A stretch of DNA of 64,000 nucleotides from the NCBI RefSeq assembly GCF_009856865.1, contig NZ_WVUD01000007.1, positions 62,001 to 126,000 of the forward strand, in the 5' to 3' direction. The DNA is from Solidesulfovibrio aerotolerans. GTDB lineage: Bacteria > Desulfobacterota > Desulfovibrionia > Desulfovibrionales > Desulfovibrionaceae. Below, one piece after another: positions 12,499 through 64,000 of this stretch. Numbering within the stretch: the stretch's first letter is position 1; each line of letters begins with the position of its first letter. The notes beneath the pieces were generated by a model that saw only the letters and a list, made by a program, of their open reading frames with translations, did no database searches and was not told where the DNA came from. Both the position numbers and the translations under genes were made by a program.

Positions 12499-12643
12499 AG
12501 AAAGCTCCGAGGCGGCCGGCGAGGAGGCCGCAATTTCAACATTTTAAAAAGTCATACAGGAAAGCCTCGTAGGGGAGTATCCCGGCGCGGGCCAAACGGC
12601 AACCCTTGCCTTGTACCCTTGGGGTGGCTATAGCACGCCTGCC

Positions 12644-14905
12644 ATGGGAAAGGATCTTATTATCGTCGAGTCGCCGGCCAAGGTAAAGACCATCAAGAAG
12701 TTCCTCGGCAATGCCTATGCCGTGGAAGCTTCGGTTGGTCACGTGCGCGATCTGCCCTCCAAAAAACTTGGGGTAGATGAAAAAGACGATTTCGCGCCGC
12801 AATATCAAATCATTCCAGGCAAGCAGAAGGTGGTGGCCAAGCTTAAGGAAGCCGCTGCCTCGGCGTCGAAGATCTATCTTGCGCCCGACCCCGACCGCGA
12901 AGGGGAAGCCATTGCCTGGCACGTGGCCGAGATCGTCAAAGACGCCGGTGTCCCCATCTGCCGTATTCAGTTTAACGAAATCACGGCCAAAGCCGTGCGC
13001 GAGGCCATTGCCCATCCGCGCGAAATAAACGAAAAACTTTTTTTATCGCAGCAAGCCCGGCGCATCCTCGACCGGCTTGTGGGCTACAAGGTGTCGCCGA
13101 TTCTGTGGCAGAAGGTCAAAAGCGGCATTTCGGCCGGCCGCGTCCAATCCGTCGCCCTGCGGCTGGTGGTTGACCGCGAAAAAGAACGCCGGGCCTTTGT
13201 GCCGGTGGAATATTGGAATTTCAAGGCCAAACTCGCCGGCGACGGACCGCCGGAGTTCGACGCCGAACTGGCCAAATATAAGGGCAAAAAAGTCGAGATC
13301 GGCAGCGCCGAGGAGGCCGCCGAGGCCGAGGCGGCCATCACCGGGAAGCCCTTTCTCGTTGCCGCCGTGACGGAAAAAGAACGCAAGAAGTCGCCGCCGC
13401 CGCCGTTTATCACCTCGACCCTGCAGCAGGCCGCCAACCAGCGGTTGGGCTATTCCGCCAAGCGCACCATGGGCGCGGCCCAGAAGCTCTACGAGGGCCT
13501 TGAATTGGGCGAGAAGGGCACGGTGGCCCTCATTACCTATATGCGTACCGATTCGACGCGTATTGCCGACGAGGCCCGGGATGCGGCCAAGGAATTTATC
13601 ACCGAGACGCTCGGCCCGGACTACTACCCGGAAAAGGCCCGCCACTTTAAGTCCAAGGCCGGTGCCCAGGACGCCCACGAAGCCATCCGGCCCATTGATG
13701 TTTCCTTGACGCCTGCCGACGTCAAGCTGCTGCTGCCCAAGGATCTTTTTACGCTTTATAAACTCATCTGGGAGCGCTTCGTGGCTTCACAGATGAGCGA
13801 GGCGCGCTTTTGGGACACCGCTGTCGATATCGCGGCCGGACCGGGCATCTTTAAAGCCAAGGGCCAGCGGCTCATTTTCCCGGGCTATTTGAAAGTCTTT
13901 GGCCAGGAAGCGGGCGATGAGGCCAAATCCTTGCCCAAGCTCGTCAAGGACCAGGAATTGACGCTTTTGGAGCTGAAAAAAGAGCAGAAGTTCACCCAGC
14001 CGCCGCCGCGCTACTCCGAAGCCTCGCTGGTGCGCGAACTGGAAGAAAAAGGCATCGGCCGGCCTTCGACCTACGCCGCCATCATCTCCACGCTCATTGA
14101 CCGCGATTATGCCCGGCTGGAAGAGAAGCACTTCGTGCCGTCCGAGCTTGGCGAGACGGTATCCGATCTGCTCGCCGAGCATTTCGTCAAGATCATGGAC
14201 GTGGGCTTTACCGCCGGCATGGAAGCGTCGCTGGACGCCGTGGCCGAAGGGCGGGCCGACTGGGTCACGCTGCTTAGAGACTTCACCGAGGATTTCTACC
14301 CCACCCTTATCAAGGCCGGCAAAGACATGGCCAAGGTCAAGGCGGGCAAGGAAACCGACGTCAAATGCGAGCTGTGCGGCAAGCCCATGGTCATTCGCTT
14401 TGGCAAGGCCGGCGAGTTTTTAGGCTGCTCGGGCTATCCCGACTGCAAGAATACCAAAGAGTTCGACCGGGCCGCTGACGGCGCGGTCATTGCCCGGGAG
14501 CGCAAAGCCGAGGAAGTGGCCTCGGTTGGCCCCTGCCCCACCTGCGGCAAGGATCTGGTGGTCAAAAAGTCGCGCACCGGCAGCCGGTTTATCGCCTGCA
14601 CCGGCTGGCCGGACTGCAAATACACTAAACCCATCTCCACCGGCGTGGCCTGCCCCCGCGAAGGGTGCACGGGCTCGTTGGTTGAAAAAAGCTCCAAACG
14701 CGGCAAGGTGTTTTACGCCTGCGACAGCTACCCGCAATGCGATTTCGCGGTCTGGGACTGGCCGATTAACGAGCCGTGCCCGCAGTGCGATTCCAAGATT
14801 TTAGTGCGCAAAAAGACCCGCGACGGCGAACTGATCGCCTGCCCGAATAAGAGTTGCCGCTACAAAAGAAGCGTCGGCGAGAAGAAGGACGAGGGCGAGG
14901 AATAG
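12644..14905 (+). CDS. topA: DNA topoisomerase I
   Basis: 753 residues from MGKDLIIVESPAKVKTIK. The TOPRIM domain (VESPAK and APDPDREGEAIAWH) is followed by the cleavage-rejoining domain with catalytic Tyr299 in ITYMRTDSTRI. Four C-terminal zinc-ribbon units follow: CELC...CSGYPDC, CPTC...CTGWPDC, CPREGC...CDSYPQC and CPQC...CPNKSC. It relaxes negative supercoils behind polymerases. The AT-rich insert lies directly downstream. Confidence 0.97.
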   Translation: MGKDLIIVESPAKVKTIKKFLGNAYAVEASVGHVRDLPSKKLGVDEKDDFAPQYQIIPGKQKVVAKLKEAAASASKIYLAPDPDREGEAIAWHVAEIVKDAGVPICRIQFNEITAKAVREAIAHPREINEKLFLSQQARRILDRLVGYKVSPILWQKVKSGISAGRVQSVALRLVVDREKERRAFVPVEYWNFKAKLAGDGPPEFDAELAKYKGKKVEIGSAEEAAEAEAAITGKPFLVAAVTEKERKKSPPPPFITSTLQQAANQRLGYSAKRTMGAAQKLYEGLELGEKGTVALITYMRTDSTRIADEARDAAKEFITETLGPDYYPEKARHFKSKAGAQDAHEAIRPIDVSLTPADVKLLLPKDLFTLYKLIWERFVASQMSEARFWDTAVDIAAGPGIFKAKGQRLIFPGYLKVFGQEAGDEAKSLPKLVKDQELTLLELKKEQKFTQPPPRYSEASLVRELEEKGIGRPSTYAAIISTLIDRDYARLEEKHFVPSELGETVSDLLAEHFVKIMDVGFTAGMEASLDAVAEGRADWVTLLRDFTEDFYPTLIKAGKDMAKVKAGKETDVKCELCGKPMVIRFGKAGEFLGCSGYPDCKNTKEFDRAADGAVIARERKAEEVASVGPCPTCGKDLVVKKSRTGSRFIACTGWPDCKYTKPISTGVACPREGCTGSLVEKSSKRGKVFYACDSYPQCDFAVWDWPINEPCPQCDSKILVRKKTRDGELIACPNKSCRYKRSVGEKKDEGEE

Positions 14906-14922
14906 GCGAGAAGAAGGAAGAG

Positions 14923-14974
14923 TGCCTCCGGCGGCCGGGGAGATGATCCCCCCGGACCCCCCGAAAAGGGTGTG
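14923..14974 (+). repeat. Dispersed GC-rich palindrome, copy 3
   Basis: Begins gcctccggcggccgggg, continues agatgatccccccgg, then accccccgaaaaggg. It lies immediately after topA and marks the left edge of the AT-rich insert. Confidence 0.85.
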
Positions 14975-15074
14975 TGTGGAGGCAATGAGGGCGGTTTCGA
15001 AGTCGTTAGCGGCGTCGGGGCCGCCTTTGTGGTTTGGGGATTACAGGATGGGCTTGAAATAAATTTCCTATTAT

Positions 15075-15866
15075 TTGGAAAAAACTATCAGTGTATTCGG
15101 TCAACATACTGAAATATATAAAATTATATTTTCCCCGTACTTAACTTATGGTCTTGATTTTTTGTTGCACTTAAAATACTTATGGGTTGCCGAACATCTA
15201 AGGAGGCGATCAGTGCGTGATTTTCATTCTTTTGAATCTACCCCGATAATTATTGAAGAAGTTGTTACTGCTCTAAAGCAAGATGTAGTCCCTTTGATTG
15301 TCGACAGTTGCCGGATTGCGAGGGATGCCTATGACCTAGATCCAGAGTTTAATGACAACTACACGCTCGGAACATACTCATGGCGAAATTTGTTTAATAG
15401 AAGTCGTGAATTGGATAAATTTTCGTGGGATGTCAAACGGTCTGAAAATGATTTGCGACTCTATTATAAAAAGTCATCATGGCCAAGATCACTTCGGGTT
15501 CACCGATGCGACGAATTGACTCGTATTCCAACGGGAGGGAAACGAGCGAAAAAGGTCGCCTGTGGCCAAGGCTTCTTGTCCTTTGAAGTTGAAAATTTAG
15601 CGTTTGAGAACTATGAACTTGTTATTGTCTACGATTTTGATGCCTTCCGAGGACTTGGTAAGATACAGGTTGTGAAGTTGTCCGGGGTTTCTCTTCGCGA
15701 AGTCCTTGCATTGCCCGTTGCTACCTTGTATCAGGCCGAACCTATTGACGTTCTGGATATTGAGGGAACCCCCGCTCCTGAAATTATTGCCGACGCTGCT
15801 CCCTCTCGCGATATCTCCAAAGATATTACGGCAAACAAACCAAAAATAGTCTTTAAAAATGAGTAA
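15075..15866 (+). CDS. Unknown protein paired with an Xre/ImmA peptidase
   Basis: 263 residues; the only reasonable start in frame is TTG. I do not recognise the family. It has no signal peptide or clear membrane helix. The N-terminal half is helical (EEVVTALKQDVVPLIVDSC), the middle is basic (GGKRAKKVACGQGFLSFEVENL), and the C-terminal 50 residues are low-complexity ending in KPKIVFKNE. Base composition is clearly AT-richer than topA and the glutamate synthase genes, suggesting transfer. It overlaps the next gene by 8 bp, which has no Shine-Dalgarno of its own, so the two are translationally coupled and probably act together. Confidence 0.7.
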   Translation: MEKTISVFGQHTEIYKIIFSPYLTYGLDFLLHLKYLWVAEHLRRRSVRDFHSFESTPIIIEEVVTALKQDVVPLIVDSCRIARDAYDLDPEFNDNYTLGTYSWRNLFNRSRELDKFSWDVKRSENDLRLYYKKSSWPRSLRVHRCDELTRIPTGGKRAKKVACGQGFLSFEVENLAFENYELVIVYDFDAFRGLGKIQVVKLSGVSLREVLALPVATLYQAEPIDVLDIEGTPAPEIIADAAPSRDISKDITANKPKIVFKNE

Positions 15867-16998
15867 GTACAGGGAATTAAGCTCTTCGCTAGCCCGGCTT
15901 GATCCTCGTAGGATTACGGCCGGACGTGAGCTTCGAGGCTTAACTAAAAAAACGTTGGCCGATAAAATCGGCAAAACACCTAGTGCGGTCACGCAGTTCG
16001 AGGCTGGCCGTTCTGGTTTGGATATTGAGACCTTTGCTGCCGTAACAATAGCCCTAGGATTACCTCCGAGTTATTTTGTCGCTCGCCATAATGATATTCA
16101 AGTAGATTTTGGAACTTGCCATTTTCGTGCAAATAAAAGTGTTCCACAAGGAGAACGTCGTCGAGCTATACAACATGCAACCAATGTTATTCAAATATTC
16201 AGATCGCTTGAGCAGCGCGGAGTTGTATTTCCAGCTCCACAAGTGCCAACATACGCGTGGAATTGTTACTCGCCATCTGAGATAGAATCTTTGTCTCAAA
16301 CAATCAGGCGTGATTGGGGTATGGGTAATGGACCGATACTCAATATGGCGGCTTTGCTAGAAACAAAAGGCGTCTTTGTTGTATTGCTTCCAGAGGAAAG
16401 CGCCAAACTGCATGCTTTTAGTTTCTGGGCAGAAGACCGACCTTGTGTTGTCGTTACAGAGTCCGTGTCAGCAAGTCATATGCAGTTCGATCACGGACAT
16501 GAATTGCTACATTTAATATTGCACATGGATGAGGCTGCTGGCGATCCAGATAGTGAGCGAGCGGCGAATCATTTCTCAGGGGCATTTCTTGCTCCACTCC
16601 ATGCCTTTCGTTTAGAATGCCCAAGAAAATGGGACCACGATGCTTTTTTGGCGCTAAAAAAACGATGGCATATATCAATGCAAGCAGCGTTATATCGAGC
16701 TAGGCAACTTCAAATAGTTAAAGAATCTAGTTTTCGGTGGGGAATGGTGGATCTTAGCTCACGGAATGAACGGCATGATGAACCAGGAGAATTTGAAAAG
16801 CCTCTCCCTTCTTTATTGTCAAAAGCACTGGAAATTGTTCAAGGAGAATTTTTTTTGGATGATCTTTCAGAAGAAATAGGTTTAGCCTCACATGAGGTAG
16901 AGCACCTGTTACAGTCTCAGCACGTCCCCCAAAATTTGATTGATTATTTTAAACCAAGTAACCCTGTATTTGCAGAGCCACAAGTTCATAAAAAGTAA
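15859..16998 (+). CDS. Xre-family HTH / ImmA-IrrE metallopeptidase fusion
   Basis: 379 residues. N-terminal Xre helix-turn-helix at about 18-70 (GRELRGLTKKTLADKIGKTPSAVTQFEAGR). The central ImmA/IrrE (DUF955) zinc peptidase has HELLH at residues 214-218 and a downstream SERAANHFSGAFLAP segment typical of the family. The last 80 residues (LLSKALEIVQGEFFLDDLSEEIG) are extra. Such proteins cleave repressors in mobile elements, stress responses and toxin-antitoxin-like modules. It is AT-rich like its partner, which is probably its substrate, antitoxin or co-factor (inference). A strong terminator follows. Confidence 0.85.
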   Translation: MSKYRELSSSLARLDPRRITAGRELRGLTKKTLADKIGKTPSAVTQFEAGRSGLDIETFAAVTIALGLPPSYFVARHNDIQVDFGTCHFRANKSVPQGERRRAIQHATNVIQIFRSLEQRGVVFPAPQVPTYAWNCYSPSEIESLSQTIRRDWGMGNGPILNMAALLETKGVFVVLLPEESAKLHAFSFWAEDRPCVVVTESVSASHMQFDHGHELLHLILHMDEAAGDPDSERAANHFSGAFLAPLHAFRLECPRKWDHDAFLALKKRWHISMQAALYRARQLQIVKESSFRWGMVDLSSRNERHDEPGEFEKPLPSLLSKALEIVQGEFFLDDLSEEIGLASHEVEHLLQSQHVPQNLIDYFKPSNPVFAEPQVHKK

Positions 16999-17020
16999 TA
17001 GAACCATATCTCTAGCTAAA

Positions 17021-17057
17021 ACGGGCCGCCTCTTCCGAGACGGCCCGTCGCATTTTT
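17021..17057. terminator. Hairpin terminator between convergent units
   Basis: Stem acgggccg (17021-17028) with cggcccgt (17041-17048), then cgcattttt. It ends the Xre/ImmA module on the plus strand and may also stop the convergent glutamate synthase operon. Confidence 0.75.
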
Positions 17058-17092
17058 CTGATCTTCCTTCTGCGTCTTCTTCTCGTCCCCAA

Positions 17093-19423
17093 CTACACCA
17101 ACGGCGTATTCTCCACGATGCTCCAGACGCCGCATGGGCAGGCGTTGCCGCAGAAACCGCAACCGATGCACTTGTCCGGGTCCGACACCATGGCGAACTC
17201 CTTGCCTTCCTTCTGCTGGCGCGAAATAGCGCCGACCGGGCAGATCGTTTCGCACAGGCCGCAGTCGCGACAGGCGCCGCAGGACGAACACTGGCTGGCG
17301 CAACTGTTGAGGTCGTTGTACTCCACCACGCGCGGATCAAAGTATTCCAGCTTGGCCCGCTTGTAGTCGAGCATCTTGCGGGTGTCCTCGCACGGCCGCT
17401 TGCCGGTGAGGATTTCGTCAATGGCGCGGGCGGCGTCGCGGCCCATGCCGATGGCCTGGGTGAGCAAGCCCGGTTTGACGAGATCGCCGATGGCGAACAC
17501 CTTGGGATTGGTGGTCTGATAGATGGCGCTCACTTTGACGTGGCCGCGCTCGGTGGCGATGGTCTCGCCCAGAAACTCGATATCCGGCACATCGCCAACG
17601 GACAGGATCACGGTGTCGGCGGGGATCAGTTCACCGGACGTAAGCGCCACGCCCTCGGCCGTGATCTCTTTGGTGAAGCAGGGCCATTTGAAGGTCGCGC
17701 CGACTTCTTCGGCGTCGTGCTTTTCCTTGCCAAAGGCAGCGGGCTTTTGGATATCGATAAGGGTAATGGTCTCGGCCCCAAGGCGGGCGGCCTCGGTGGC
17801 CACGTCGCAGCCGACGTTGCCAGCCCCGATGATGACCACGCGCTTGCCAACGGTGGCTGTGCCCTTCTTGGCGGCCTTGAGGAAGGTGAGAGCCGGGGTG
17901 GCCAGTTCCTTGCCCGGCACAGGCAGGATACGCGGCTTGTTGGCCCCGACAGCCAGGACGACGTAGTCAAAATCGGTGACGATCTGGCCGAACTCGTCAG
18001 CGGAGAGCGCCTTTTGCAGTTGGATATGCGGCAGGATTTCCCGGGCGCGGGCAATCTCGGCATCCAGCACGTCGGCCGGGATGCGGCTCGACGGGATGGC
18101 GGCGCTGATCTTGCCGCCGAGTTTTTCCGAGGGGTCGTAGATAATGGCTTCGTGGCCGGCCAGCCGCAGTTGCCAGGCAACGGACATGCCGGCCGGACCG
18201 CCGCCGATGACAGCCACGCGCTTGCCGGAAAGCTCCGGCAGTTTGGGCATCTTGCCGGCTTTGACATTGGCCTTGCCGAGCATGGCGGTATCAAGGGGCT
18301 TTAAATGGCCCACGCTGCGCGTGCAGCCCTGCATACACAGGTTGGGGCACAGATAGCCGCAGATGGTGGCCGGGAAGGGCGTGTAGGCCAGGGCCAGATC
18401 CATGGCTTCGTCCATGAGGCCGTCGCGCACGAGTTGCCAGCGCTCCTGCACCGGGATGCCGGTGGGGCAGCTGGCTTGGCAAGGGGACAGGTACTTCTTG
18501 TTTTCCCAGACCGGCACGTAGCGGCGCAGTTCGCCGGAAACGATCAGCCCCACCGGGCTGCGGTCGGAATCGTCGAGATCGCCAATAAGCCCGCCGCGAC
18601 CGAGTTCGGCGTCCCAGACATTGGCCCGGAAATCGCTGAGGTTCCGGCGCACTTTGCCGGTCTTTTCATACGGGCTGCGGGCGAGGATGAGCTGCCAGTC
18701 GTCGCGTATGGTCAGTCCGTCAAAGAGCTCCGGCTGGCCGATGGCGGCCAGGAAGTTTTTAAGATTTTCGGTGAGCCAGGCCCAGGCCGCGTCGTCCACG
18801 GGCACCAGCTTGGCGTCGGCCAGGGAAAAGCCCTTGTGCGGCCCGCGAAAGAAGATGCGCCCGCCGACCATGCCGACGCAGGGCCGATAGCCGAGCACGT
18901 TATCCGGGTTTTGCGGTTTGTGCCCGCAAACCACGGCCGTGCCGCCGGCCATGAATTCGGCGAAATAGTCGCCCGCGCTGCCGAGGATAAACAGCTCGGG
19001 GGCGTCGTATTTCGGGTTCTGCTTGGTCATGGTCATGCCGCGCGAACCGATGTTGCCGGCGATCATGACCTTGCCCTGGGCCATGGCGTTGCAGGCACCG
19101 TTGCCGGCGTTGCCGCGCACAACGATCTCGGCCCCGGCATTGAGCCAGCCGATATCGTCGGAGACCGAGCCTTCGATAAGGATTTTGGTGCCGGGAAAGC
19201 CCATGGAACCGGTGCGCTGGCCCGGCGAGCCGGTGATGCGCAGGGTGACGGGTTCGCTGCGCGAAACCCACAAACGCCCGCCGATGCCGTGCTGGCCGTA
19301 GGCTTCTACGGTCAGGTCGCGCGCGCCCTGGGTCACAGCCTGCTGGATGTGCTCTTCCAGGATGCGGGAATCGACCCGGTGGCCGTTTTCAATGCCGTGT
19401 ATGGTGACGGTCTGGTGTGCCAT
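17093..19423 (-). CDS. Glutamate synthase GXGXG domain fused to FAD oxidoreductase and ferredoxin
   Basis: 776 residues in three parts. Residues 1-240 form the Gly-rich GXGXG beta-helix found at the C-terminus of GltB (GNAGNGACNAMAQGKVMIAGN, VGMVGGRIFFRG). Residues about 320-690 resemble the GltD/NuoF-associated oxidoreductase: Cys cluster CQASCPTGIP and CGYLCPNLCMQGC, FAD site VAVIGGGPAGMSVAWQL, NAD(P)H site VVIIGAGNVGCDVATEA and AIGDLVKPGLLTQAIGMGRDAA. The C-terminus carries two 4Fe-4S motifs (CRDCGLCETICP, CIGCGFCGNACPCG) plus CASQCSSC. It would supply electrons from NAD(P)H or ferredoxin. Last gene of the three-part operon. Confidence 0.88.
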   Translation of the reverse strand: MAHQTVTIHGIENGHRVDSRILEEHIQQAVTQGARDLTVEAYGQHGIGGRLWVSRSEPVTLRITGSPGQRTGSMGFPGTKILIEGSVSDDIGWLNAGAEIVVRGNAGNGACNAMAQGKVMIAGNIGSRGMTMTKQNPKYDAPELFILGSAGDYFAEFMAGGTAVVCGHKPQNPDNVLGYRPCVGMVGGRIFFRGPHKGFSLADAKLVPVDDAAWAWLTENLKNFLAAIGQPELFDGLTIRDDWQLILARSPYEKTGKVRRNLSDFRANVWDAELGRGGLIGDLDDSDRSPVGLIVSGELRRYVPVWENKKYLSPCQASCPTGIPVQERWQLVRDGLMDEAMDLALAYTPFPATICGYLCPNLCMQGCTRSVGHLKPLDTAMLGKANVKAGKMPKLPELSGKRVAVIGGGPAGMSVAWQLRLAGHEAIIYDPSEKLGGKISAAIPSSRIPADVLDAEIARAREILPHIQLQKALSADEFGQIVTDFDYVVLAVGANKPRILPVPGKELATPALTFLKAAKKGTATVGKRVVIIGAGNVGCDVATEAARLGAETITLIDIQKPAAFGKEKHDAEEVGATFKWPCFTKEITAEGVALTSGELIPADTVILSVGDVPDIEFLGETIATERGHVKVSAIYQTTNPKVFAIGDLVKPGLLTQAIGMGRDAARAIDEILTGKRPCEDTRKMLDYKRAKLEYFDPRVVEYNDLNSCASQCSSCGACRDCGLCETICPVGAISRQQKEGKEFAMVSDPDKCIGCGFCGNACPCGVWSIVENTPLV

Positions 19424-60191: not shown

Positions 60192-60267
<76 letters not shown>

Positions 60268-60278
60268 CGAAGCATGCC

Positions 60279-60314
60279 AAGGGGTTACCTAGAAATAAGT
60301 GACCCCTTTTTCTT
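60279..60314 (+). terminator. Terminator after tRNA-Ala
   Basis: Stem aaggggttac with gtgacccctt (9 of 10 pairs) at 60279-60288 and 60299-60308, followed by ttttctt. Confidence 0.8.
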
Positions 60315-60416
60315 TACGGGGCCGCCAACGCGCGCCAACACTAGGGTGTGGCGGGTATGTACCAGGGCATAACCATTTGCCAGCCCACCTGTTAGACCAA
60401 GAAACTATTCCCCGGT

Positions 60417-60441
60417 CGCTTGAATTTTTTTCAAGAGGTCG
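60417..60441 (+). repeat. Near-copy of the tRNA-Ala anticodon arm
   Basis: 25 nt cgcttgaat-tttt-ttcaagaggtcg equals tRNA bases 60216-60240 at 21 of 25 positions; only ggca at the anticodon is replaced by tttt. A second dyad tcgcttg...caagcga at 60521-60543 has the same form. It may be an integrase site remnant. Confidence 0.7.
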
Positions 60442-60553
60442 CCCCCCCTCCGCCTCTTTCGCTCCTGTCAAAAATAATTTCCTGATTTTACTGATAGTTG
60501 CACAAGAAAAGAAACCACGGTCGCTTGTGGGATTTTCAAGCGATCCCCCCCAC

Positions 60554-60583
60554 TTTGGACATTTGGACATTTCGGGTGCATCC
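60554..60583. repeat. TTTGGACA-type direct repeat, copy 1
   Basis: tttggacatttggacattt then cgggtgcatcc. Further copies at 61889-61918 and 62095-62122 and a degenerate one near 62648. Confidence 0.7.
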
Positions 60584-60650
60584 CTTGAAAAAATTTGGTT
60601 CCGTTTCCTGCTGATGGAAATCTTGGCTGAGCCTGGTCCAGGAAAAGCCC

Positions 60651-61250
60651 CAGGAACTGGCTGAATAAGGCACAGGGGGTGGGAAATAACCGGGGCCGGT
60701 TGGCCTTCCTGGTTCTGTCCCGTGTCACCCACTGGTCCAAATGTCACCCTATGCGCCGGCGATTTGCAGATAAGTTTCTGAATTAATGAACCTTATCTGC
60801 TGGTGACAAATGTGACATTTCAAATATGGCCGCTGCAAAAATCAGATGCAGAAACTCTGGTTCGGCACCTCGCCGTCGGCATCGGAAGGCTGACCCTGAT
60901 GCAGGAAAAGTCGTAGGAACTGGCTGAATAAGGCACAGGGGCCACGATTTCTACCCGTCCCCCTTGGTCTTCCTGGGCTTGTCCCGTGTCGCCCACTGGA
61001 CCAAATGTCACCCTATGCGCCGGAATGATCGCGTTAATGCACTGAATTAATGAAATTTATCTGCTGGTGACAAATGTGAGATTTCAAATATGGTCGCTGC
61101 AAAAATCCTCGGTTAAAACCATTGCCCAGCACCTCACCGGCGGCATCGAAGACTGACCCTGATGCAGTGTTTGGCGCGGATACTGGCCGAATGAGGCATA
61201 GGGGCTGGGATTTTACCGGGGCTGGTTGGTTTTCCTGGGCCAGTCCCGTC
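60651..61250. repeat. Tandem repeat units of about 265 bp
   Basis: Units start at aggaactggctgaataagg (about 60651) and again at 60914, with a truncated third (atactggccgaatgagg, about 61179). Each contains ccaaatgtcaccctatgcgc and ggtgacaaatgtga. In unit 1 a stem gcagataag...cttatctgc is nested within aaatgtcac...gtgacattt. Role unknown. Confidence 0.75.
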
Positions 61251-61756
61251 CTCGTCCCCGGCCGCCGCCCCGGACACCCCCTGGATTCGCGCCCTACGCC
61301 CCCTTCCTGGGCCGTTCCCCTGGTGCTGGGGCCTTTGTCCCCCTGGGCCTTCCCCGCTCCAGGGTGGCCCTCCTAGGCTGAAAGCCCGATTTCCTTTGGG
61401 CTTGGGCCATCGTCAGGAAATGCGCACAAATAAATCTCATCGAACTTACTGAGCTTTTTTCCGCCTACCTGAATTAACTGCAGTTATTTCTAGTCGCCCT
61501 CGAAAATAGCACTAGACAGAGTTGCAGCCCGGCCCTATATCTTAGGCGTGTCCTTTGTGAAGGTTGTTTGCAATCTTAACGGAGGTAATGCCATTGGGTG
61601 AATTAACTGTCGGAGAGTTTCCCTCGCAGTAGAGCACTTGAAGGCCAGCAATTAATATAAACTGGCAAACTCCACGTGTGGTAAACACTAGCTCTACGTT
61701 CTTAGTCGAGGCCGTCACAACAACCCATTAGTCATTTATTACATCGCAACTTTACT

Positions 61757-61791
61757 GGCCCCGGCTTTTACAGTCGGGGCCTTTCTTTTTT
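61757..61791 (+). terminator. Strong rho-independent terminator
   Basis: ggccccg (61757-61763) with cggggcc (61775-61781), then tttctttttt. Nothing annotated precedes it on this strand, implying an unrecognised transcript from the 61.4-61.75 kb region. Confidence 0.8.
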
Positions 61792-61888
61792 GCATCGATA
61801 TGGCTGGCTAAGTGCGATTTTTGCTGCTTGGCGAGGCGAGAAACATCGACTTCATATAACTTTCTGATATTCCAGGTGAAAACCGGCA

Positions 61889-61918
61889 TTTGGACATTTG
61901 GACATTTGAAATGCATCC
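61889..61918. repeat. TTTGGACA-type direct repeat, copy 2
   Basis: tttggacatttggacattt then gaaatgcatcc, followed by an A-rich run. Confidence 0.7.
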
Positions 61919-62094
61919 TAAAAAAAATCTGAGTCCGAGGGCCAAATGCTCCTTGGGCCGCTTGCCCTGGACCTCCAGACTGAGCGGTGGCGGAGGCTTT
62001 GCCATAGGAACAGACCGAGTGAGCACTACGGCGAGGGGAAATTGCCCGGCCCCGCTGGTTTCCTGGTCCTGTCCTTTGGCTTTGCCACGGCCAG

Positions 62095-62122
62095 TTTGGA
62101 CATTTGGACATTTGAAATGCAT
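62095..62122. repeat. TTTGGACA-type direct repeat, copy 3
   Basis: Same core followed by gaaatgcatc and an A-rich run. It precedes the DUF488-like gene's 3' end. Confidence 0.7.
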
Positions 62123-62188
62123 CTCCAGAAAAAAATCGTCGTCAGCGAACATAGCAGCCGCCCTGCGTAACCTGGACGGCTCTACCGC

Positions 62189-62548
62189 TCAGAATTGAAG
62201 CTCTGGAACTTCGACTCCAGTACCCTTTTCGATCCATTCTGCTACGAGACGTCGATGGCAGAATTCGCCGGCCTTTTCAAAGCATAGCAGTGTCGCGTCA
62301 TCACCGAAGATTCTTATAATTTCATCTAGAACTTCTTGGGGGTTAAGCTTTGACAAGACGACACGATAATATTCTTCGGTATATTGTTCGACTGTGATCG
62401 ATCCTTTCTTCCAATAATCAACGAGATACATGGGCGGGGCAAGTTTTTTGTATTCTCTGGAGTTTGTACCCCATCGGTACTTTTGTTGCGAAATTCTTAC
62501 AGGATTTTTGATTTTTTTCTCTTGCGCATAATATGATGTGGTAACCAT
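62189..62548 (-). CDS. DUF488-like protein
   Basis: 119 residues. The C-terminal signature LLCFEKAGEFCHRRLVAEWIE is the DUF488 hallmark. The N-terminus (RISQQKYRWGTNSREYKKLAPP) is basic. The role of DUF488 proteins is not known; they often appear near phage or island genes. AT-richer than the core genes. Coding strand points toward the tRNA. Confidence 0.75.
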   Translation of the reverse strand: MVTTSYYAQEKKIKNPVRISQQKYRWGTNSREYKKLAPPMYLVDYWKKGSITVEQYTEEYYRVVLSKLNPQEVLDEIIRIFGDDATLLCFEKAGEFCHRRLVAEWIEKGTGVEVPELQF

Positions 62549-62822
62549 AGCTGCCCCTGTGGTTATAAAGTGCGATTAATTTCTGCCACAGACGACAGCC
62601 CTTGTCACCCAGATTTCAGCCTTTCTCGCCGTCACTCTTTGCAAGGGTTGGACAATTAGACCTTTCAAGTGCATTCTTCGGATGTAAGACCACTCCTGGT
62701 GAGGGACACCTGGCAATAGACCTTCACCCACTATGTTAAATGGTTAACAAAGACTTGCCGGCTGACGGTTTTCCAATCTATACGTTCGACTTTATTCTCC
62801 AACAGCAAGCATGAGGTTATAA

Positions 62823-64000
62823 ATGGATTCAATCGGTGCACTTAGATTCGCAGACTTGCTAGCAAATGATCCGCTTTATTGCAATGGCGATATGTTGAAA
62901 TTCTTGATCAATTCGCTCGCTATTGAAAACTCAATTCAACTTTATTTTTGTGGGTATCTTTACGGTTCTAAAAAAAATCCTATCCAAAGACTACACACAA
63001 CTATAGAATACATATCCTACGCCCGGCCGATAGAAGAAGGAGCCGTAAGTAAAGTCGAATACAAACAGCCTTCTGTTTTTAGGCCGTACGATAAGTATTT
63101 AAAATCTGAAATTGAATCTCTTGAAGAAAAATTTCCTGACGAAGGTGATTACGTTTTTGAACTTGACAAAATGAGACAACGCGTAATTCGAAACAACAGC
63201 TTCCAGGTTCAATTTGTTACAACGATTTTGTCATGTAATCTTGAATTTGTAATTGGTGACAACACTCAGAAGCTTGGCGCAACCCAGCTTGAAGGGCTAA
63301 TTAATTGTGACTTCAACGGGTGTCTTATTGATGCTTTGAATAGCTTTGTTTTAACAAGCGACTTTATATCTAAATATTTTAGTGAAAATCTTCTCCCACT
63401 GCCAGTGTCGCTGTATCCAAGCTCTTCTTTTAATACAGATTTGTTCGGAAAAAAATATAAAATCAGCAAGTGGGATGATAATGGTGCGCGGAGCGACTTT
63501 AAGCAATTCTATTCTGAACAATCGCGCAATAGAAACGAAGCACTTTCACATAGTAAAGTCGAAAGCGAGCCAAAAACTTACTCAACGCAGGAAGTCGTTA
63601 AAAAACCAACACCAATAGTTGCTGAAATAATTTCGACCAACGATCAAACTAATAATGCTTTTTATAAGTGTGGTCAACAATGGGAAATAATTTTTAACGG
63701 CAAAAGAAGTCTTCTCAATGATAGTGTTGGACTAAATTACATTTGCCAGATCATTTGCGCTGGAATAAAAGGGGTTTCTGTGTATAATTTGGCAGCGGCA
63801 AATGACAACCAATTAGTTTCAGAAGACAATAATTATTTTGATTCGCCTCAAAATGTATCAGAACCACATGTAGCATATATCAAAAGAAGAATAAAATCAA
63901 TAAGCAAGAAAGACTTTGATAAAGTGCTCGAAAAACTTAAAGATGATAAGTTGAAACTTAAAGAAAAACTAGAAGATGGGAGAATTGAAATTGATGATTA
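62823..64000 (+). CDS. Large AT-rich unknown protein, partial (runs off window)
   Basis: ATG at 62823 (MDSIGALRFADLLANDP) starts a frame of 392 codons that reaches the window end without a stop. No signal peptide. Residues 1-210 are of unknown fold; 230-275 are Ser/Lys/Glu-rich. Residues about 280-325 (FYKCGQQWEIIFNGKRSLLNDSVGLNYICQIICAG) resemble the small winged-helix-like domain often read as YWTIAYEGKTFRLRDSKG in regulators and ATPases, and a Lys/Glu coiled coil follows (FDKVLEKLKDDKLKLKEKL). Codon use is AT-rich, implying transfer. Function not known; the C-terminus is missing. Confidence 0.7.
   Translation, partial: MDSIGALRFADLLANDPLYCNGDMLKFLINSLAIENSIQLYFCGYLYGSKKNPIQRLHTTIEYISYARPIEEGAVSKVEYKQPSVFRPYDKYLKSEIESLEEKFPDEGDYVFELDKMRQRVIRNNSFQVQFVTTILSCNLEFVIGDNTQKLGATQLEGLINCDFNGCLIDALNSFVLTSDFISKYFSENLLPLPVSLYPSSSFNTDLFGKKYKISKWDDNGARSDFKQFYSEQSRNRNEALSHSKVESEPKTYSTQEVVKKPTPIVAEIISTNDQTNNAFYKCGQQWEIIFNGKRSLLNDSVGLNYICQIICAGIKGVSVYNLAAANDNQLVSEDNNYFDSPQNVSEPHVAYIKRRIKSISKKDFDKVLEKLKDDKLKLKEKLEDGRIEIDD

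What the first reader, a model, noticed from the sequence alone, without database searches (positions are those of the whole stretch)
14990..17020. AT-rich two-gene module: unknown protein + Xre/ImmA peptidase
Both genes overlap by 8 bp, share AT-rich composition unlike both flanks, and end in a strong terminator. The partner protein has no family I recognise. ImmA/IrrE peptidases act on repressors or toxins in mobile elements, so this may be a defence, toxin-antitoxin or stress switch with a new partner.
Basis: partly seen in the sequence, partly recalled or inferred. Interest (0 to 1): 0.62.

Follow-up and report, generated by a model that had tools for sequence, protein, structure and literature searches.

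The report
Phage-defence toxin–antitoxin pair with clamp motif
This AT-rich gene pair looks like a toxin-antitoxin phage-defence module of the RosmerTA kind, with a toxin subfamily that standard databases miss; its toxin family often carries a short motif like the one proteins use to grip the DNA-replication clamp, which suggests how the toxin could stop growth.

Summary
The pair is real: a GTG-started 217-aa gene (15213-15866) overlaps by 8 bp an HTH-M78 peptidase gene (15859-16998), at 43-46% GC between flanks of 59-65%. The second protein is an RmrA antitoxin by profile (PADLOC E 6e-68). The first has no Pfam, NCBIfam or PHROGs match and a weak RmrT match (E 0.006). With relatives from Geobacter, Geomonas and two viral contigs it forms a subfamily that profile comparison links to one recognised RmrT cluster (hhalign E 1e-5; controls 0.09 or worse). 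So this is a divergent RosmerTA system. It sits at a spot where at least three congeners carry other AT-rich, defence-like genes; the terminator belongs to the shared flank. Mechanism: many RmrTs carry QxxL(x)F, a clamp-binding signature, in a central loop: 25 of 58 non-redundant partners (this toxin included; shuffle mean 1.45), 2 of 106 neighbouring ORFs, 4 of 14 in a hold-out fixed beforehand (expected 0.24). P0001 has Q119-G-F-L122-S-F124. A published Rosmer toxin, pneumococcal RipA, acts on the DnaN hydrophobic pocket; that paper's main text names no motif. Best reading: release of a clamp-blocking toxin on infection. Toxicity, neutralisation and clamp binding are inferred here.

The parts
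14971..17016 (.). AT-rich module: the stretch between topA and the glutamate-synthase-like gene that is not shared with congeners
   Evidence: blastn of 11 congener regions: left flank aligns to W 14969-14971 in five, right flank from W 17017/17018 in three; GC drop
15200..15206 (+). Shine-Dalgarno-like AAGGAGG, 6 nt before GTG
   Evidence: sequence
15213..15866 (+). RmrT-like toxin gene (217 aa, P0001, GTG start)
   Evidence: RmrT subfamily by hhalign; weak PADLOC RmrT E 0.0061
15567..15584 (+). codons of Q119-G-F-L122-S-F124, the QxxLxF clamp-binding-like motif
   Evidence: (Q119, L122 invariant in 6 homologues)
15859..15866 (+). 8-bp overlap of the two genes (same 8-bp overlap in the viral homologue L020)
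15859..16998 (+). RmrA antitoxin gene (379 aa, P0002): Xre-type HTH plus M78 (ImmA/IrrE) peptidase
   Evidence: PADLOC RmrA E 6.4e-68; PF01381, PF06114; phrog_2439 E 1.1e-70
15925..16077 (+). HTH_3 domain (residues 23-73)
16498..16512 (+). HELLH zinc site (residues 214-218), intact
   Evidence: H214, E215, H218 invariant in 9 RmrAs
17021..17048 (.). terminator hairpin of the flank; not part of the module
   Evidence: fold -20.5 kcal/mol; aligned in congeners L133-L135

Best explanation
A RosmerTA toxin-antitoxin phage-defence module. RmrA (HTH plus M78 peptidase) represses the operon and holds the RmrT toxin inactive. When infection or stress disturbs RmrA, the freed toxin binds the hydrophobic pocket of the replication sliding clamp (DnaN) through its exposed loop motif (Q119-x-x-L-x-F124), displaces polymerase and other clamp clients, and stalls DNA replication. 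Shown by sequence: the gene pair, the RmrA identity, the link of the toxin subfamily to an RmrT cluster, the motif and its non-random placement across RmrTs, and the recurrence of the pair. Inferred: toxicity, neutralisation, autoregulation, the phage trigger, and clamp binding by this toxin (by analogy with pneumococcal RipA). My confidence is about 0.9 for RosmerTA membership and about 0.5 for the clamp as target.
For: P0002 matches 14 PADLOC RmrA models, E 6.4e-68 to 1.6e-27. The toxin subfamily (6 proteins, c2) matches RmrT cluster c1 by hhalign, probability 81%, E 1.2e-5 over 132 columns; 12 column-shuffled or reversed controls gave at most 0.6% and E 0.09. Six tested members of c0 and c1 hit PADLOC RmrT models at E 6e-6 to 9e-54. 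An upstream ORF of 180-290 aa lies beside RmrA in 71 of the 80 viral loci kept (of 341 found) by script; L021 was added by hand. Motif QxxLF or QxxLxF starting at 48-68% of the length: 25 of 58 non-redundant partners (24 of 57 without this toxin), shuffle mean 1.45, maximum 5 in 500 shuffles; 26 instances inside that part and 2 outside. Neighbouring ORFs 2 of 106, PIN partners 0 of 5. Hold-out fixed in advance: 4 of 14, mean expected 0.24, 0 of 1000 shuffles reach it. QL(S/D)LF is the stated bacterial clamp-binding consensus, and SocB is said to bind the clamp by such a motif (PMC9690074, passages). RipA, a Rosmer toxin, is suppressed by substitutions at five DnaN pocket residues (PMC12795458, sections read). 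In the model, residues 120-131 are a low-confidence stretch between helix 110-117 and strand 135-143.
Against: P0001 has G, not L, at motif position 2. Its closest relatives read QLFLCL (L020) and QLFLSP (L021) at the place; L021 does not match the pattern, and L020 was counted only through an off-register QKQLF. 33 of 58 partners lack the strict motif. The review that gives the consensus places it at the C-terminus of clamp binders, not in a central loop. Another RosmerTA toxin (Gordonia phage Kita) depolarises membranes (PMC10440598, passages), so mechanisms differ within the group. c2 aligns poorly with the largest RmrT cluster c0 (4.4%, E 0.009) and not with c3-c7, one of which (c5, L012) is a PADLOC RmrT (E 0.086). 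No viral structure matched the P0001 model at E 0.001. The search pattern and the central part were chosen after looking at the first set. RipA itself was not compared here. Two RosmerTA homologues tested in Streptococcus thermophilus were inefficient against most phages tried (PMC12322248, passages).
Confidence: 0.6

Rival explanations
1. RosmerTA module whose toxin is a nuclease: the RmrT fold resembles PD-(D/E)XK restriction enzymes and would cut phage or host DNA, the clamp motif only bringing it to replicating DNA.
For: Models of P0001 and of a c1 RmrT both have R.SwaI at the top of the VIA-align list, Z 5.6 (130 and 139 residues, rmsd 4.1 and 4.4); by my own count from recalled superfamily labels 29 of 50 and 46 of 50 listed entries are PD-(D/E)XK proteins, many of them EcoRV.
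Against: Z is below 8, the level under which the tool warns of common arrangements only; R.SwaI is tied with Rep15 (5.3) in the first list and EcoRV and DrdV (5.2-5.0) in the second. The two models are not independent: all 18 sequences behind the second are also rows of the first alignment. Foldseek found nothing at E 0.001. By eye I see no conserved acidic-acidic-lysine triad in the alignments.
Confidence: 0.15
2. RosmerTA module whose toxin damages the membrane, as shown for Gordonia phage Kita RmrT.
For: The RosmerTA toxin tested in PMC10440598 acts so (passages).
Against: P0001 has no clearly transmembrane-like stretch (best 19-residue Kyte-Doolittle mean 1.48) and the model is a compact alpha/beta domain; the paper reports predicted membrane regions for the Kita toxin.
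Confidence: 0.08
3. Not a toxin-antitoxin pair but a stress or prophage-style switch: the M78 peptidase cleaves its own or another repressor and the 217-aa protein is a regulator.
For: ImmA and IrrE are such proteases; a 2009 survey discussed a regulatory role for COG2856-Xre genes (PMC2701414, passages).
Against: RmrA-level profile match and upstream-partner operon as in RipAB; the locus sits in a spot with defence-like genes in at least three congeners.
Confidence: 0.1

Closest known systems
RosmerTA (RmrT + RmrA), PADLOC; Millman et al. 2022 (seen only as a citation in PMC10440598)
   Same: Two-gene operon, RmrA with Xre HTH and M78 peptidase, about 220-aa upstream partner, presence in viral contigs and plasmids
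   Different: Best PADLOC RmrT match of the toxin is E 0.006; P0001 is only 23-41% identical to its own subfamily members
RipAB (spr1630-spr1629) of Streptococcus pneumoniae (PMC12795458; abstract, sections 7, 8, 12 and find passages read)
   Same: Rosmer-type pair; antitoxin with HTH and ImmA-like domain; P0002 matches NCBIfam antitox_spr1629 at E 7e-28 but far below its cut-off (97.8 of 335 bits)
   Different: RipA sequence not compared here; toxicity and DnaN dependence shown there, only predicted here
SocAB of Caulobacter crescentus
   Same: Works like: toxin said to bind the clamp cleft by the usual clamp-binding motif (PMC9690074, passage)
   Different: Not tested here for membership; PMC12795458 (section 12) reports no sequence or structural similarity between SocB and RipA or between their antitoxins
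Kita phage RmrT-D5/RmrA-D25 (PMC10440598, passages)
   Same: RmrA protease antitoxin with a family-less toxin, phage defence shown
   Different: That toxin has predicted membrane regions and depolarises cells; P0001 shows none

Membership tests
RosmerTA | Antitoxin RmrA: Xre HTH plus M78 peptidase, RmrA profile match | tested here: met
   E 6.4e-68 over residues 11-353, 14 RmrA models; PF01381 and PF06114 above cut-off
RosmerTA | Toxin gene RmrT directly beside RmrA | tested here: met
   8-bp overlap; relation to RmrT cluster c1 by hhalign E 1.2e-5 with controls. Weak points: single-sequence PADLOC hit E 0.0061, L020 and L021 have none at 0.1, c0 only E 0.009
RosmerTA | Pair conserved in other genomes and mobile elements | tested here: met
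   Geobacter, Geomonas; viral contigs L020, L021
RosmerTA | First gene toxic, second gene neutralises | not testable with these tools
   needs expression
RosmerTA | Protects against phage | not testable with these tools
   needs phage challenge
Clamp-targeting toxin (works like RipA, SocB) | Bacterial clamp-binding motif QL(S/D)LF or its relaxed form QxxL(x)F | tested here: met
   Q119-G-F-L122-S-F124 in P0001: only the relaxed form (recalled), and two close relatives lack the final F
Clamp-targeting toxin (works like RipA, SocB) | Binds DnaN and is suppressed by pocket substitutions | not testable with these tools
   two-hybrid and suppressor genetics needed
PD-(D/E)XK nuclease superfamily | Core fold | tested here: inconclusive
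   best Z 5.6 in both models, below 8; models share alignment rows
PD-(D/E)XK nuclease superfamily | Catalytic PD...(D/E)XK residues conserved | tested here: inconclusive
   no such triad seen by eye in the alignments; no structure-based alignment made
RmrA-type gene with PIN partner | PIN nuclease gene downstream of the HTH-M78 gene | tested here: not met
   no PIN-like ORF follows 16998; the next gene is on the - strand (read by eye)

The most novel reading that the evidence does not exclude
RmrT toxins are, as a superfamily, sliding-clamp blockers: a restriction-enzyme-like but apparently non-catalytic scaffold that presents a clamp-binding peptide from a fixed loop, so that RosmerTA defence works by seizing DnaN. 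This would unite RipA, the present toxin and many prophage RmrTs under one mechanism, with the membrane-acting Kita toxin as an offshoot.
Probability: 0.45. Interest if true: 0.75.

Novelty: new variant of a known kind. Interest (0 to 1): 0.55.

Why it matters
RosmerTA is a phage-defence system reported in many genome surveys, and in the papers I saw its toxins have no common explained mechanism. A shared clamp-binding-like motif gives a specific, cheap test (three point mutations and one two-hybrid), would explain the published RipA genetics, and shows that some toxins of this system are missed by the profile libraries searched. The locus also marks a variable spot with defence-like cargo between topA and a glutamate-synthase-like gene in this genus.

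Tried and rejected
Direct naming of the 217-aa protein by Pfam, NCBIfam and PHROGs (0 matches at E 1) and by tblastn in 72,556 plasmid and 50,697 phage records (no match at E 0.01) led nowhere; single-sequence scans of genome contigs and viral contigs found no relative, nor did RmrA as a single sequence in viral contigs. The two-sequence alignment A1 then found four loci in genome contigs and none in viral contigs. NCBIfam names none of ten RmrTs tried, two of them of P0001's subfamily (one stray hit, E 0.018). BFVD gave no fold match at E 0.001, nor did PDB by Foldseek.

A nuclease mechanism was considered and ranked lower: PD-(D/E)XK-like rows recur but at Z below 8, from two models that share alignment rows, and without a visible catalytic triad. 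A membrane mechanism was ranked lower. The idea that the hairpin marks the end of the module was rejected. Another Peptidase_M78 gene in this genome was sought with PF06114: only this one reaches E 0.001.

Rows dropped before counts: viral loci are the best 80 of 341. In one search only upstream ORFs of 180-290 aa entered the set (82, of which 70 unique); nine of 80 viral loci had none by the script, one of them (L021) was added by hand. Of 11 named phage or plasmid loci fetched first, 10 entered; L149 was left out because no annotated gene lies directly upstream. In one search, 82 proteins were reduced to 58 clusters at 60% identity; that set still holds one probably spurious ORF (L037_up1) and this window's toxin in its 263-aa form. 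The 106 background ORFs were picked mechanically and some are surely not genes. In the hold-out the ORF of L156 was chosen by script because the record has no annotation there, two of 14 proteins (L157, L166) look nearly identical, and overlap with the first set was not removed.

Full report
Observation. The window holds two overlapping genes on the + strand between topA (12611-14905) and a - strand gene (17093-19423) that I read as glutamate-synthase / oxidoreductase-like; both flank labels are mine, from no family call. GC falls to 0.43-0.46 over the pair against 0.59-0.65 in the windows on both sides. The upstream gene is better started at GTG 15213 (217 aa), 6 nt after AAGGAGG, than at TTG 15075 (263 aa). 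The 8-bp overlap is as reported. At gathering thresholds Rfam finds one tRNA in the window and nothing else.

Families. The 379-aa protein (P0002) has HTH_3 and Peptidase_M78 domains above cut-off, matches 14 PADLOC RmrA models (best E 6.4e-68), phrog_2439 (1.1e-70) and, below its cut-off, NCBIfam antitox_spr1629 (E 7e-28, 97.8 of 335 bits). The 217-aa protein (P0001) has no match at E 1 in Pfam, NCBIfam or PHROGs and one weak PADLOC match, RmrT, E 0.0061. RmrT plus RmrA is RosmerTA, a phage-defence toxin-antitoxin system (PMC10440598, passages). The word was found in 29 papers, a few of them on apples and so unrelated (listing only). In Streptococcus thermophilus two RosmerTA homologues were inefficient against most phages tested (PMC12322248, passages).

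Relatives of the pair. Of 395 genomes of the same phylum, 2 encode a P0001 relative at E 0.001, own genome included, and 13 encode an RmrA at E 1e-20, own included. Of these 13, 6 have an upstream partner (206-241 aa, and 263 with the long start for this window), 5 have a downstream ORF of 157-174 aa, and 2 have neither. Three of the five downstream ORFs were scanned and are PIN-like. Of five upstream partners scanned, three hit RmrT models at E 1.5e-19 to 3.6e-53, one at 6e-6 and one at 0.013. A two-sequence profile found the toxin in four Geobacter or Geomonas contigs; both genes are seen in three of them, the fourth contig ends before the second gene. An RmrA alignment found 341 viral-contig relatives, of which the best 80 were fetched. 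L020 (59% best-segment identity) and L021 (50%) are closest, and both carry a P0001-like partner; L020 has the same 8-bp overlap. 71 of 80 viral loci have an upstream ORF of 180-290 aa by script. Within the genus, 3 of 14 genomes have an RmrA-like protein at E 1e-10, own included, and the other two are distant (28-30% identity).

P0001 and the RmrTs. Clustering 72 upstream proteins gave three main groups: c0 (37), c1 (21) and c2 (6, with P0001), and five small ones. hhalign of c2 with c1 gives probability 81%, E 1.2e-5 over 132 columns; with c0 only 4.4%, E 0.009; with c3-c7 nothing (E 0.09-0.5), although c5 is a PADLOC RmrT (L012); c0 with c1 33.8%, E 4e-4; twelve shuffled or reversed controls give at most 0.6% and E 0.09. 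Six tested members of c0 and c1 are recognised RmrTs (E 6e-6 to 9e-54). AlphaFold models: P0001, mean pLDDT 77, pTM 0.70; a c1 member 84.5 and 0.85. They are not independent, because the 18 sequences behind the second are also rows of the first alignment. Both show N-terminal helices, three strands, a helix and three strands; the c1 model has further C-terminal helices. Top of the VIA-align list in both is R.SwaI, Z 5.6, tied with Rep15 in the first and with EcoRV and DrdV in the second; 29 and 46 of 50 listed rows are PD-(D/E)XK proteins by my own recalled labels. Z stays below 8, so the fold call is only a lead. No BFVD structure matched the P0001 model at E 0.001.

The motif. Between the central helix and the fourth strand many RmrTs show QLSLF, QLELF, QFDMF, QIDLF, QMSIF and the like. 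The bacterial clamp-binding consensus is given as QL(S/D)LF, usually at the C-terminus and possibly much more variable (PMC9690074, passage); the relaxed form QxxL(x)F is recalled. In 58 non-redundant partners, 25 have QxxLF or QxxLxF (L may be M or I) starting at 48-68% of the length, this toxin included (24 of 57 without it), one of them, L020, by an off-register match; residue shuffles give 1.45 on average and at most 5 in 500; 26 instances fall inside that part and 2 outside. 13 of 95 RmrA proteins hold the pattern anywhere. Of 106 neighbouring ORFs of 180-300 aa, 2 have it in that part and 10 anywhere; 0 of 5 PIN partners have it. Because pattern and region were chosen after seeing the first sequences, I fixed a hold-out test on 14 plasmid loci whose sequences I had not looked at: 4 of 14 (Nocardia, Sphingobium, Methylocaldum, Massilia), expected 0.24, 0 of 1000 shuffles. 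In P0001 the motif is Q119-G-F-L122-S-F124; Q119 and L122 are invariant in the six-protein alignment, but L020 and L021 read QLFLCL and QLFLSP at the place. Several partners without the strict motif keep a remnant there (NYDLF, GPMLF, TVDMF), and others have nothing like it.

Why this matters for mechanism. A December 2025 paper shows that RipA (Spr1630), toxin of a pneumococcal Rosmer pair, is toxic, is neutralised by RipB (Spr1629; HTH plus ImmA-like), and is suppressed by substitutions at five DnaN residues that cluster in the clamp's hydrophobic pocket (PMC12795458; abstract, sections 7, 8, 12 and find passages read). In its main text the words motif, consensus and QLSLF do not occur; supplements were not seen. 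Of 14 papers listed for three of the terms Rosmer, DnaN, toxin and sliding clamp, only this one holds 'Rosmer'. The motif found here would explain the RipA result and predicts the same for P0001. Against a universal mechanism, the Kita phage RmrT depolarises membranes and 33 of 58 partners lack the strict motif.

The site. In 11 congeners the topA-side flank aligns (to W 14969-14971 in five, to 14847-14913 in six), and in six the other flank aligns from W 17017-17097; the other five show no second flank within the 8-11 kb fetched. Cargo at or beside the spot differs: an AAA ATPase with a DUF4276 protein next to topA (HEC-01, E 8e-222 and 3e-84) in G401; a Mrr-like protein in G402, with a near-identical start seen by eye in G399; NsnA/GmrSD-like plus a RiboL-PSP-HEPN protein in G400; a pentapeptide-repeat protein in G405 (no PADLOC match); a permease-like gene, by eye, in G404 and G398, in G398 with a 243-aa ORF that has no match. 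In four (G407, G395, G397, G403) the first 8 kb after topA show no AT-rich stretch. So the spot turns over, with defence-like cargo in three of the five genomes whose proteins I scanned, and the 17021-17048 hairpin is part of its border.

Verdict. A divergent RosmerTA system (about 0.9), most likely a phage-responsive toxin-antitoxin pair whose toxin blocks the sliding clamp (about 0.5). Not categorically new; the toxin subfamily is not covered by the libraries searched, and the clamp-like motif across RmrTs is a testable new lead.

Noticed in passing
window 14906-17100 and loci L131-L141: The topA / glutamate-synthase-like junction is a variable spot in this genus: HEC-01, Mrr-like, NsnA-like plus HEPN, pentapeptide-repeat or only a permease-like gene, depending on species.
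   Followed up: partly
window, several places (e.g. 3361, 11520, 14925, 25114, 25169, 29504, 39308, 39419, 48991): An interspersed GC-rich element (CCTCCGGCGGCC, GGTCCGGGGGGAT) recurs, one copy at about 14925-14961 at the left border of the module.
   Followed up: no
window 60192-64000: tRNA-Ala (60192-60267) followed by DNA whose GC falls to 0.35 and by a long open frame from about 62824 that runs to the window end; may be an integrated island.
   Followed up: no
loci L006, L008, L013, L014, L015: Other HTH-M78 genes of the phylum have a downstream ORF of PIN size instead of an upstream RmrT; three of the five were scanned and are PIN-like, so the antitoxin type goes with different toxin classes and gene orders.
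   Followed up: partly
loci L024, L026, L061, L072, L076 and others: RmrTs without the strict motif often keep a remnant at the same loop (GPNLF, GPMLF, NRDLF, NYELNF, NYDLF), as if the motif were eroding or adapted to other clamps.
   Followed up: no
models m54d46cd266a0 and m651093891e32: Two RmrT models (sharing alignment rows) both list R.SwaI first and many restriction-enzyme-like chains after it, at Z under 6.
   Followed up: partly
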